Shown here in pieces: positions 636 through 6,002 of a stretch of DNA of 14,010 nt. Both the position numbers and the translations under genes were made by a program. Position 1 is the stretch's first letter, and every line of letters begins with the position of its first letter. The DNA is taken from positions 1 to 14,010 of the forward strand of contig WJIO01000202.1 in assembly GCA_014730235.1 (NCBI GenBank), read 5' to 3'. The notes below the pieces were generated by a model. That model made no database searches. It worked only from the letters and a program-made list of their open reading frames with translations, and had not been told where the DNA came from. This stretch comes from Candidatus Poribacteria bacterium (GTDB taxonomy: Bacteria > Poribacteria > DTPJ01 > WJIO01).

Positions 636-929
636 TTAGTTATATAAAGGTAAAGGTTCTTCCGAAAAATCTTTCATGGATACATTCAATATTGGTGTTC
701 CAAAAATATCTTCCTCGCTGGCGTAACCCAAACCCATAATTATATCTGCTAACTGTGCTTCCATTGTTATCTTAAATTCAGCTGCGGACAATTTTCCTGA
801 TTTTACTATTGCTTCTCCAGATTTTCGTGAGGCATCCTGAATCATCATAGCGATATTAAGTTGATTGCGGGTTATTATACCATCTTCTACCAAACTTTCT
901 CCCAAAGGTGAATTTCTGAATATCTCCAT
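636..929 (-). CDS. Stand-alone MshEN-like small protein
   Basis: The ATG at 929 is preferred because GGAGGT lies 7 bases upstream; a longer form starting at a TTG (944) would overlap that site. The product has 97 residues, no signal peptide and no membrane segment. Residues 9-31 (LGESLVEDGIIT..QL..AM..Q) and 37-59 (SGEAIVKSGKLSAAEF....EAQ) are two tandem halves with the pattern of the MshEN domain (RLGxxLV..G.I....L..AL..Q), known as the N-terminal c-di-GMP-binding domain of MshE/PilB/GspE-type ATPases. The Arg that opens the motif is Pro8 in half one. The second half has KSG instead of RLG, so ligand binding is uncertain. There is no ATPase domain and no pilus gene nearby. It could be a small c-di-GMP adaptor or a diverged fold relative. 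Family call moderate, function unknown. Confidence 0.6.
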   Translation of the reverse strand: MEIFRNSPLGESLVEDGIITRNQLNIAMMIQDASRKSGEAIVKSGKLSAAEFKITMEAQLADIIMGLGYASEEDIFGTPILNVSMKDFSEEPLPLYN

Positions 930-1044
930 CAAGATTACCTCCAAATCTATTTATTTATAAAATATATTGTTAATCAAATCTATAATCTATAACGCAAGAC
1001 ATATGCCAGCATAAAATCAGCATTTTGGATGCTACTTAAAGATA

Positions 1045-2823: not shown

Positions 2824-3957
2824 TCATTTTTTAGCCATTACCTCAAACAGAAAAATCTCTTCCTTTGATCCCAAAACTCTACTGGTTCGAGTTAAACTTT
2901 TGTATCCTGATATGTATAAATTATTATCATGAATTATTTTTTTCAAATGATTAATACTATCCCCCCCTTTTCTCTGGGAAACGTCGGAATACTGAATCAG
3001 GATTACACCATTTAAATCCAGATAATTTCTTACTTTAGCCATGAATCCATCAATAACTTTATAACCGGGATCGTAATTGGCGGTATCATACAAAGTCTGT
3101 GGTTCTCCCTTTATCCATGGTGCATTAAAGATAATAACATGGAATTTTTCACCTTTTAGAGGATCAAAGAGGTTTGCAGGACCTTTTACATCCACGATTC
3201 CATCAAAACCAAGTTTTTTAATATTGCATCTGGCATTTTTTACAGCATTGGGATTACTGTCAGTGGCTGTAACTTTTGACGCACCCATTTTAGCTGCCAG
3301 TAAAGCCAGAATTCCTGTGCCTGTGCCTATATCCAGAACTTTTTTACCATCTATCAAATGTTTACATTCCAGGAACATGGATGGCACGCTCTGATCATTA
3401 GGAACATACACATGGGGATATATAGTTATGGAATCATTTAAATAATTAATAAATATTCCCTCTTTTGCCCGTTTCATATCTGTGAGTATTCGCTGAAGCC
3501 TGCGTATGGGTATCAGGTATTTGTTACCTTCTATAGGTTTTTGAAACCACTCCTGAAGACCTGAAGTATCAGGCCCTTTTTCTATATCTAGCAGCGAATC
3601 ATCCCTCATCATAAGCAGGATGCGGTGCAGTTTTTGCCTTCGTTCATCAGTATAAGCGGCGCTGCGCTGGGATGGATTTTCTATATGACTGTATTTACCA
3701 TCAGTGATAAGCTTTCGTTCAAAATGCTGACAGTATCGAAAAATTCCATTTGCCCGGGGATAAGAACCTTTCAATACAAGTGCCTTATTCATGACCAACA
3801 GGTTAAATAATTTTTCAGCTGATTCACAGGAATCATGTATCTCCACCGACTCAATTGTTCCTGTAAATATGGCAAACTCATGAGGGATTATAAATTCTCC
3901 GTATTCAGGTATACTAATTTTGATATTTTTATTTTGTACCCGGGTATTCATAACCAT
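2824..3957 (-). CDS. Class I SAM-dependent methyltransferase with an unassigned N-terminal half
   Basis: A 377-residue protein. The C-terminal half is a Rossmann methyltransferase: motif I VLDIGTGTGILALL (207-220), the acidic ribose-binding loop ATDSNP (231-236) with D233, and motif IV IIFNAPWI (275-282), an NPPY/NPPW variant. That motif is typical of MTS/HemK-like enzymes that act on planar amide or amino nitrogens (rRNA, protein Gln, adenine). The first ~185 residues match nothing I recognise and may choose the substrate. Two ATGs (3957 and 3951) are possible; neither has a clear Shine-Dalgarno sequence. The upstream bases hold a predicted promoter. It may be cotranscribed with the MazG-like gene downstream. 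Substrate unknown; assignment as methyltransferase secure. Confidence 0.85.
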   Translation of the reverse strand: MVMNTRVQNKNIKISIPEYGEFIIPHEFAIFTGTIESVEIHDSCESAEKLFNLLVMNKALVLKGSYPRANGIFRYCQHFERKLITDGKYSHIENPSQRSAAYTDERRQKLHRILLMMRDDSLLDIEKGPDTSGLQEWFQKPIEGNKYLIPIRRLQRILTDMKRAKEGIFINYLNDSITIYPHVYVPNDQSVPSMFLECKHLIDGKKVLDIGTGTGILALLAAKMGASKVTATDSNPNAVKNARCNIKKLGFDGIVDVKGPANLFDPLKGEKFHVIIFNAPWIKGEPQTLYDTANYDPGYKVIDGFMAKVRNYLDLNGVILIQYSDVSQRKGGDSINHLKKIIHDNNLYISGYKSLTRTSRVLGSKEEIFLFEVMAKK

Positions 3958-4056: not shown

Positions 4057-4224
4057 TCTTCAAAATTAAGTGTGGTATTAATAAGAATTTTTGTATATTG
4101 TCATTCCTGCTTCAAGCTTTTTGAAAAAGCTTGAGCAAAAAGGAATAAGAGTTTCGCAGGAATGACAGTATAAAAAAGTTTCTTATCTTTACCCCACTCA
4201 AGCCGGAAAAGCCAGATTTTTTAG
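4057..4224 (+). repeat. MITE-like palindromic repeat, copy B, with an expanded loop
   Basis: The left end (ATCTTC...AAGTGTGGT, 4057-4076) and right end (ACCCCACTCAAGCCGG, 4191-4206) are imperfect inverted repeats of each other. The 12-bp core arms match copy A exactly (TGTCATTCCTGC 4099-4110, GCAGGAATGACA 4156-4167). The loop is 45 bases instead of 4 and carries an additional perfect palindrome: CAAGCTTTTT (4113-4122), G, AAAAAGCTTG (4124-4133). AGTTTCTTATCTTTA (4177-4191) and GATTTTTTAGA (4214-4224) are shared with copy A. Same orientation as copies A and C. Confidence 0.75.
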
Positions 4225-4263
4225 AATTCTCAGATAAGTATAAAATTGCAAAATTGAGGGGAG

Positions 4264-4345
4264 GGACAGGAAGGATGGGATTTTAATTTATAAGGGAGGG
4301 GAATAATATTTATATTGTAATTAGGATCCCATCCTATTCCTGACC
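4264..4345 (-). other. Long imperfect hairpin over the 3' end of the small ORF
   Basis: On the + strand, GGACAGGAAGGATGGGAT (4264-4281) pairs with ATCCCATCCTATTCCTGACC (4326-4345): 10 pairs, a 2-base bulge, 5 pairs, one mismatch, 2 pairs, with a 44-base loop. On the - strand one arm is made of the last codons of the small ORF, and its TAA lies in the loop. The 3' arm is followed by C/T-rich sequence, not a clean T run. It may stabilise or end the small mRNA, but it is not a standard intrinsic terminator. Confidence 0.5.
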
Positions 4346-4440
4346 TTCAATTTTTTCATGGCCTCATCCATCATAGCGAAGGATATTGGCATAGTAAGAA
4401 GCACGATTATAATTGTTGCCAGGATTCTCACCTTAATCAC
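4321..4440 (-). CDS. Small secreted or membrane-anchored peptide (39 residues)
   Basis: The frame runs from GTG (4440) to TAA (4321-4323). AGGAAAGG lies just upstream, with AAGGA 7 bases from the GTG. The product reads as a signal peptide: basic MIKVR, hydrophobic ILATIIIVLLTMPI, and a plausible cleavage site SFA (residues 20-22). A 17-residue basic tail, MMDEAMKKLKVRNRMGS, follows. It could be exported as a short cationic peptide, or stay as a single-span membrane protein if uncleaved. A sigma-54-type promoter starts about 150 bases upstream and a leader hairpin lies between, so the unit looks deliberately expressed. No homologue is recognised. The alternative is the 5' stub of a lost secreted-protein gene, since the peptide is short and nothing continues the frame. 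Existence moderately likely, function unknown. Confidence 0.5.
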   Translation of the reverse strand: MIKVRILATIIIVLLTMPISFAMMDEAMKKLKVRNRMGS

Positions 4441-4545
4441 TTACCTTTCCTTACTCCTTGAGGGTCAAATTTCTGACGCTGTCTTTCGGATTTCTGTCAA
4501 GTTCAAATTATTTTTTGTGGATTATTTTGTGTAATTGCATCCTGC

Positions 4546-4586
4546 AGATGCTTTTCAAGGGTGAAATATTCCAAGATCAAGCATCT
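4546..4586 (-). promoter_or_regulatory. Leader hairpin after the sigma-54 promoter
   Basis: AGATGCTT (4546-4553) and AAGCATCT (4579-4586) are a perfect 8-bp inverted repeat with a 25-base loop. On the - strand transcript predicted from 4601-4616 the hairpin would begin within about 5 bases of the 5' end, which can protect an mRNA. The rest of the leader down to the small ORF contains a 10-codon ATG frame with no proper ribosome binding site. Confidence 0.45.
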
Positions 4587-4600
4587 ATACTATTTATATT

Positions 4601-4616
4601 TGCAACAATTGTGCCA
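4601..4616 (-). promoter_or_regulatory. Sigma-54 (RpoN) type -24/-12 promoter
   Basis: On the - strand the sequence is TGGCAC (4616-4611), five bases, TTGCA (4605-4601). This fits the RpoN consensus TGGCAC-N5-TTGC(A/T) at every defined position, with GG and GC at the required spacing. The predicted start is near 4591, reading toward the small peptide ORF. The 144 bases between it and the oxidoreductase stop codon are very A/T rich and could hold an enhancer-binding protein site. The only symmetric candidate seen is CGCT-N13-AGCG (4651-4671), which is weak. A TAGTAT just downstream could also act as a vegetative -10 but has no good -35 partner. Confidence 0.6.
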
Positions 4617-4760
4617 TCTAAAATAAAATTTTAACTTCAAATAAAATAGTCGCTTAAAAACTTTATTAGCGGTTGTTTAATTTAGTAATTTTTAGAAAAC
4701 ATATTCAGGTTTTCCCTTAATGAACTTCACCCGTCAGGAGAAAAAAGGTAGTATAAAATT

Positions 4761-5771: not shown

Positions 5772-5803
5772 TATTCAATCCTCCTGCATTTGATAAAAAA
5801 TTA

Positions 5804-5922
5804 GGCTCTTCCGGGTTTAGTGTGGTCACAATTGAAAATTCTCTCAGCTTGTCATTCCTGCTTTCGAGGAATGACAGTATAAAGAAGTTTCTTATCTTTA
5901 CCCCACTCAAGTCGGAAGAACC
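5804..5922 (+). repeat. MITE-like palindromic repeat, copy C (best preserved)
   Basis: The 23-base ends, GGCTCTTCCGGGTTTAGTGT... (5804-5826) and ACCCCACTCAAGTCGGAAGA... (5900-5922), are inverted repeats matching at 18 of 23 positions. The core hairpin is TGTCATTCCT (5850-5859), a 7-base loop, and AGGAATGACA (5867-5876); one C of the copy A stem is missing. AGTTTCTTATCTTTA (5886-5900) is identical to copies A and B. The element is about 119 bp with no ORF and lies 33 bases upstream of the oxidoreductase start. Confidence 0.8.
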
Positions 5923-5931
5923 AGAAATTAT

Positions 5932-6002
5932 AGTTCTTCCGGATTTAGGGTGGTAATAATTTGAAAAGCTTTTTACATTTCCACACTCAAGTCAGAAAAA
6001 GC
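5932..6002 (+). repeat. MITE-like repeat, copy D (core deleted)
   Basis: The left end (TTCTTCCGGATTTAGGGTGG, 5934-5953) closely matches the left end of copy C, and the right end (CCACACTCAAGTCAGAAAAA, 5981-6000) matches the right ends of B and C. The hairpin core is absent, leaving about 71 bp. It abuts copy C. The junction forms a perfect 9-bp hairpin, CGGAAGAAC (5913-5921) with GTTCTTCCG (5933-5941). Confidence 0.65.

What the first reader, a model, noticed from the sequence alone, without database searches (positions are those of the whole stretch)
4321..4616. Sigma-54 promoter driving a 39-residue signal-peptide ORF with structured leader and 3' end
Five elements line up on the - strand: a TGGCAC-N5-TTGCA promoter (4601-4616), an 8-bp leader hairpin at the predicted 5' end (4546-4586), a purine-rich ribosome binding site, a GTG-started ORF whose product is a clear signal peptide plus a 17-residue basic tail (4321-4440), and a long hairpin over the stop codon. 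The ten defined bases of the promoter are expected about 0.03 times on both strands of 14 kb with equal base use. RpoN promoters need an activator, so this may be a signal-controlled secreted peptide unit, such as a pheromone, small toxin or membrane regulator. The function is inference.
Basis: partly seen in the sequence, partly recalled or inferred. Interest (0 to 1): 0.66.

Follow-up and report, generated by a model that had tools for sequence, protein, structure and literature searches.

The report
RpoN-switched small exported peptide gene
A tiny gene in an uncultured Poribacteria bacterium, switched on by an RpoN (sigma-54) promoter, makes a conserved 36-39-residue exported peptide; its closest available relative keeps both peptide and promoter, and both leaders carry a binding-site-like element shared with surface-protein genes, so it is a real, regulated small gene of still unproven function.

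Summary
TGGCAC-N5-TTGCA lies at 4601-4616 (-), the GTG ORF at 4321-4440, and the genome has rpoN and about 27 strong RpoN activators. The decisive test, conservation, is positive. The only other held genome of the class (G001, Ca. Poribacteria SpSt-970, another family; IF-2 67% identical) carries the peptide (MKILLATILIVLTMPISYAMMDLAIRKIRMKIGIKSD), with TGGCAT-N5-TTGCA 188 nt upstream and different neighbours. DNA similarity is confined to the ORF; dN 0.27, dS 2.3. The stretch from hydrophobic core across the predicted cleavage site is most constrained.

Corrections: the leader hairpin and strong 3' hairpin are not conserved. The homologous start suggests 36 rather than 39 residues. The leader carries an unreported tandem palindrome, TCARANNTYTGA-N9-TCARANNTYTGA (4465-4497). 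It recurs near RpoN promoters of secreted and Ig/cadherin-like proteins in both genomes, weakly in G001's peptide leader, and upstream of a G001 histidine-kinase/RpoN-activator operon. I read it as an enhancer downstream of the start site.

Best explanation: an activator-controlled, stand-alone gene for a small envelope peptide within a cell-surface regulon. Feedback on the sensor kinase is the leading but unproven role. SecM-like control is contradicted: nothing lies downstream in G001.

The parts
4601..4616 (-). Sigma-54 promoter TGGCAC-AATTG-TTGCA; predicted transcription start near 4590
   Evidence: Only match in the window, 0.03 expected; 25 vs 2 control sites genome-wide; TGGCAT-ACAAT-TTGCA at the same relative place in G001 (L003 1796-1781)
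4441..4590 (-). Predicted 5' leader, about 150 nt; overall sequence and fold not conserved
   Evidence: Leader local alignment no better than shuffles (214 of 1000 reach it); fold z -0.35 here, -0.03 in G001
4545..4587 (-).
   Evidence: z -2.0 in isolation, no counterpart in G001
4465..4497 (.). Tandem palindrome TCAAATTTCTGA-N9-TCGGATTTCTGT (21-bp period), candidate binding site of an NtrC-type activator, about +94 to +126 of the predicted start site
   Evidence: Found at G000:C181 by BLAST; pattern with up to 3 mismatches 24 vs 4 control in G000, 14 vs 4 in G001; score 28.5 with a matrix built without this site, 0 of 1760 simulated promoter regions reach it
4444..4459 (-). Purine-rich ribosome binding region AAGGAGTAAGGAAAGG
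   Evidence: Read
4321..4440 (-). Small exported-peptide ORF, 39 aa from GTG 4440 or 36 aa from GTG 4431; predicted signal peptide ending SFA, then MMDEAMKKLKVRNRMGS
   Evidence: Homolog in G001, E 1.9e-6 single sequence; dN 0.27, dS 2.26, codon-position differences 6/7/18; no Pfam or NCBIfam family
4264..4345 (-). Strong hairpin spanning the last codons and stop; may stabilise or end the transcript, not conserved
   Evidence: -27.4 kcal/mol, z -5.3 here; z -0.6 at the G001 gene end

Best explanation
This is a real, stand-alone small gene. RpoN RNA polymerase sits at 4601-4616 and is opened by an NtrC-type activator that binds the tandem palindrome at 4465-4497, inside the leader (an enhancer downstream of the start site). 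The best candidate activator is the response regulator of a sCache-type histidine kinase/response regulator pair conserved in both genomes (G001:C426, G000:C360). The mRNA encodes a 36-39-residue peptide with a signal-peptide-like N-terminus, which goes to the inner membrane or, if cleaved after SFA, leaves a 17-residue basic peptide in the periplasm. It is made together with secreted and Ig/cadherin-like surface proteins whose promoters carry the same element. Most likely role: a small envelope peptide that tunes this regulon, for example by feedback on the periplasmic sensor of the kinase. Shown by computation: promoter, rpoN, coding conservation, promoter conservation, shared element. Inferred: activator identity, export, feedback role (the role alone perhaps 0.25).
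For: Promoter unique in the window and enriched genome-wide; rpoN; about 27 and 17 strong activators. Homologous 37-aa peptide in G001 with TGGCAT-N5-TTGCA 188 nt upstream; nucleotide similarity limited to 4422-4351, inside the ORF; dN 0.27 vs dS 2.26 and third-position-biased differences, against IF-2 identity of 67%. Different neighbours and a convergent gene 8 nt after the G001 stop make it an autonomous gene. Tandem element: independent matrix scores 28.5 in the window and 19.2 in the G001 peptide leader, 0 of 1760 simulated regions reach either; 6 of 44 RpoN promoter regions score 14 or more, 0.05 expected, though three of the six contributed to the matrix. Element near secreted, SIMPL, LVIVD and Ig/cadherin proteins and upstream of the G001 kinase/activator operon; orthologous activator 71% identical with near-identical DNA-binding helix.
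Against: Only two genomes carry the peptide, and only two of the class are held. In G001 the element is degenerate with 20-bp spacing. The G000 kinase/activator operon has only one strong palindrome about 77 bp upstream and no recognisable RpoN promoter in the stretch read. No SignalP or expression data. The hydrophobic stretch could be an uncleaved membrane segment. No data test the feedback role.
Confidence: 0.68

Rival explanations
1. Exported peptide signal: the peptide, or a fragment of its signal peptide, is released and sensed by neighbouring cells, coupling the surface regulon to density.
For: Predicted type-I-like signal peptide with S-(F/Y)-A cleavage motif and a short basic remainder in both genomes; constraint is highest from the hydrophobic core across the cleavage site (dN 0.10 over the first 19 codons vs 0.63 over the last 12).
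Against: No exporter, protease or receptor gene next to it in either genome; two-membrane cells need an extra release step; the C-terminal tail is variable.
Confidence: 0.17
2. Structural or assembly helper: a small membrane protein that assists export or anchoring of the surface proteins of the same regulon.
For: Shared element with secreted and Ig/cadherin-like proteins in both genomes; RpoN commonly controls the cell exterior (PMC3162934).
Against: No physical linkage to any export machinery; no similarity to known helper families.
Confidence: 0.25
3. Secretion-monitoring leader peptide (SecM-like) or regulatory upstream ORF: translation of the signal-peptide ORF and the hairpin over its stop codon control the downstream methyltransferase gene (2824-3957).
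For: Same strand as the methyltransferase; a strong hairpin spans the stop codon.
Against: 363 nt separate the stop from the next start; in G001 the next gene is convergent, 8 nt away, and the hairpin is absent.
Confidence: 0.04
4. The RNA matters: a sigma-54-dependent small regulatory RNA with a small ORF (dual-function sRNA).
For: Long leader, short transcript of about 250-330 nt, RpoN promoter as for GlmY (PMC3162934).
Against: Leader sequence and fold are not conserved; only the ORF is.
Confidence: 0.06
5. Type I toxin-like hydrophobic peptide.
For: Short, hydrophobic, basic tail.
Against: Single copy, activator-dependent promoter, similar promoter in a distant relative, no evidence for an antisense RNA.
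Confidence: 0.04
6. Chance: an open frame behind a chance promoter match.
For: A 39-codon frame in AT-rich DNA is easy to find by chance.
Against: Homolog with the same promoter in another family, low dN/dS, similarity confined to the frame.
Confidence: 0.02

Closest known systems
MgrB, 47-aa inner-membrane feedback inhibitor of PhoQ/PhoP (PMC2789325)
   Same: Short peptide with one N-terminal hydrophobic segment, apparently in the regulon of a two-component system with a periplasmic sensor
   Different: No sequence similarity claimed or tested; MgrB is PhoP-dependent, here RpoN/NtrC-type; feedback not shown; the element-activator link is inferred
NtrC-family regulons with enhancers downstream of the start site, such as FlrC of Vibrio (PMC6504787)
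   Same: RpoN promoter with the putative activator site downstream of the start site
   Different: Site sequence and target genes differ; here the same element also occurs upstream of other promoters
RpoN/PrsK-PrsR control of PEP-CTERM surface proteins (PMC9850573, PMC1569441)
   Same: A histidine kinase plus RpoN activator possibly controlling secreted surface proteins
   Different: Orthology of the kinase/activator and presence of PEP-CTERM tails were not tested; the peptide has no PEP-CTERM tail
SecM-type secretion-monitoring leader peptides
   Same: Signal peptide ORF with an RNA hairpin at its end
   Different: No regulated downstream gene in the G001 relative; hairpin not conserved

Membership tests
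Sigma-54-dependent promoter/gene | -24/-12 element with GG and GC ten bases apart, close to TGGCACG-N4-TTGCA | tested here: met
   TGGCACAATTGTTGCA
Sigma-54-dependent promoter/gene | rpoN and AAA+ activators in the genome | tested here: met
Sigma-54-dependent promoter/gene | Promoter conserved before the orthologous gene | tested here: met
   TGGCATACAATTTGCA in G001
Sigma-54-dependent promoter/gene | Transcript start about 12 nt downstream and loss of expression without rpoN | not testable with these tools
   Needs 5' mapping in a culture or heterologous host
Protein-coding small gene | Amino-acid conservation above nucleotide conservation | tested here: met
   dN 0.27, dS 2.26; differences by codon position 6/7/18; only 43 of 20000 randomised substitutions score as well without a stop
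Sec signal peptide | Basic n-region, hydrophobic core, Pro and small residues at -3/-1 | tested here: inconclusive
   Seen by eye in both homologs (MPISFA, MPISYA); SignalP not available, an uncleaved membrane helix is possible
MgrB-like feedback peptide | Membrane peptide that binds and inhibits the sensor kinase of its own regulon | not testable with these tools
   Regulon membership inferred from the shared element only
SecM-like leader peptide | Downstream gene controlled by the leader ORF, conserved with it | tested here: not met
   Convergent gene 8 nt away in G001
Known protein family (Pfam, NCBIfam) | Profile match | tested here: not met
   None for the window peptide; only a non-significant hit for the homolog

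The most novel reading that the evidence does not exclude
A new family of RpoN-controlled exported peptides in Poribacteria in which the signal-peptide and cleavage-site segment itself is the active message, controlled by an activator site embedded in the leader, so that peptide signalling and the surface-protein programme are coupled.
Probability: 0.12. Interest if true: 0.7.

Novelty: new member of a known kind. Interest (0 to 1): 0.45.

Why it matters
Small exported peptides are missed by gene callers, above all in uncultured phyla. Here one is supported by sequence alone: coding conservation, promoter conservation and a shared regulatory element. It also exposes an RpoN regulon for surface proteins in Poribacteria, with a candidate sensor kinase, activator and binding site that can be tested biochemically without cultivation.

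Tried and rejected
Homologs elsewhere: 84 genomes of the phylum, the GTDB 220 genome collection (only the G001 record) and viral contigs (a chance match inside a different protein) gave nothing more; plasmids none. Rfam: only sub-threshold matches; the MIR1507 hit at 4257-4353 merely reflects the 3' hairpin. Leader RNA conservation: rejected. SecM-like model: rejected by G001 gene order. Heat-shock-type enhancer TGCCAAAATGGCA, found at other RpoN promoters, is absent from both peptide promoters. Amphipathic-helix test of the tail: hydrophobic moment not above shuffles (0.36 and 0.60 of shuffles reach it), so an antimicrobial-helix reading gets no support. An RNA reading of the tandem palindrome is less likely because it also lies upstream of some promoters, outside their transcripts.

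Full report
What is there. On the - strand the sequence reads TGGCAC-AATTG-TTGCA at 4616-4601, a 150-nt leader from a predicted start at 4590, a purine-rich RBS (4459-4444) and a GTG-started frame of 39 codons (4440-4321). The pattern TGGCAYN5TTGCW occurs once in the window with 0.03 expected. The window is a whole contig (C129) of a 5.5-Mb draft genome. The nearest held genome, G001, matches a record titled Candidatus Poribacteria SpSt-970, which places the phylum.

RpoN is in use. rpoN is present (E 1e-60). The strict consensus TGGCAYRN4TTGCW occurs 25 times against 2 for the reversed pattern in the own genome, and 21 against 1 in G001. There are about 27 and 17 strong activator (PF00158) matches.

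The peptide is real. One relative in the same order but another family, G001, encodes MKILLATILIVLTMPISYAMMDLAIRKIRMKIGIKSD. Upstream of it, 188 nt before the ATG (161 nt in the window), stands TGGCAT-ACAAT-TTGCA. With 21 such sites in 4.6 Mb, finding one on the right strand within 300 nt upstream by chance has a probability of roughly 7e-4 (my arithmetic). DNA similarity between the genomes covers only 4422-4351, inside the frame. Over 31 aligned codons the differences are 6, 7 and 18 by codon position; dN 0.27, dS 2.26. The first 19 codons (LATIIIVLTMPISFAMMDE) have dN 0.10, the last 12 have 0.63. IF-2 is 67% identical between the two genomes, so this is not recent DNA. The peptide is not found in 82 further genomes of the phylum, but only two genomes of this class are held. 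The dS value is near saturation and rests on 31 codons, so only its direction is safe.

The unit is autonomous. In the window the gene lies between a Gfo/Idh/MocA oxidoreductase and a methyltransferase. In G001 it lies between a PIN-like gene and an rRNA-methyltransferase-like gene (named from their sequences), the latter convergent and ending 8 nt from the peptide stop. So no downstream gene is shared, and leader-peptide models such as SecM are contradicted.

What is not conserved. The leader as a whole, the leader hairpin and the 3' hairpin. The 3' hairpin is strong (z -5.3) and may end or protect the transcript in this genome only. The homolog's ATG aligns with the second GTG (4431), so the start is uncertain: 36 or 39 residues.

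A shared regulatory element. Part of the leader (4515-4464) matches a place just before the start of an Ig-domain secreted protein at G000:C181. The common part is two 12-bp palindromes, TCARANNTYTGA, 21 bp apart (two helical turns). With up to 3 mismatches it occurs 24 times against 4 for the control in the own genome, and 14 against 4 in G001. Of the nine sites with up to 2 mismatches that I count as separate loci, eight lie between genes. Associated genes include Ig/cadherin-like secreted proteins in both genomes, SIMPL/DUF541 and LVIVD proteins. A matrix built without the window or the G001 peptide site scores 28.5 and 19.2 there; none of 1760 simulated regions reaches either. I chose the pattern after seeing the window copy, so the window score is not a blind test; the G001 leader is the more independent one, and it is weak (20-bp spacing, four mismatches). 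The element also stands upstream of the RpoN promoter of a histidine kinase/activator operon in G001. Its activator has a 71% identical ortholog in G000, with the same DNA-binding helix and a sCache/HAMP kinase beside it; a single strong palindrome precedes that G000 operon. RpoN activators can work from downstream of the start site, as FlrC does in Vibrio (PMC6504787).

How it probably works. A periplasmic signal acts on the kinase; the activator binds the leader element and opens the RpoN promoter; the peptide is made with the surface proteins of the regulon and goes to the envelope. What it does there is inference. A feedback role like that of MgrB on PhoQ (PMC2789325) is the most economical, since the peptide is short, has one hydrophobic segment and appears to share a regulon with a periplasmic-sensing kinase. 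A secreted signal or an assembly helper are close rivals. Nothing measured here separates these three.

Relation to known things. RpoN control of the cell exterior is a known theme (PMC3162934), as are downstream enhancers and small peptides in two-component regulons. The peptide itself belongs to no Pfam or NCBIfam family. I therefore call it a new member of a known kind.

Noticed in passing
L031, L032, L036, L026 (own genome); L039, L045, L052 (G001): Strict RpoN promoters stand before hsp20 and clpB in both genomes and before groESL in the own genome, with a shared inverted repeat (TGCCAAAATGGCA, TGTCATTTTGGCAT and similar) upstream of several of them and of receiver-domain genes. This looks like a heat-shock regulon under RpoN control.
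   Followed up: partly
window 993-1008 (-): A second RpoN-like site, TGGCATATGTCTTGCG, about 50 nt upstream of the 102-aa ORF 636-944 (-), which has no Pfam match.
   Followed up: no
L041 501-516 and downstream (G001:C102); L049 (G001:C240): RpoN promoters before a small Cys-rich peptide (MRYEKPILINLTDIEISEGCYCES...) and before a radical-SAM-like protein; possibly a modified peptide and its enzyme, on separate contigs.
   Followed up: no
window 4684-4722 (-): A repeat of about 40 bp (CATTAAGGGAAAACCTGAATATGTTTTCTAAAAATTACT) upstream of the promoter, with at least seven other copies in the genome.
   Followed up: partly
window 4090-4230, 5780-5960 and many contigs: Scattered REP-like inverted repeats (TTCCGG-TTAGTGTGGTAA ... 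GTCATTCCTGC) typical of this genome, some between genes near RpoN sites.
   Followed up: no
G000:C324:826-879 (L127), G001:C36:8095-8148 (L126): Three palindromes in a row at 21-bp spacing, before a metallophosphoesterase gene and a LVIVD-repeat secreted protein.
   Followed up: partly
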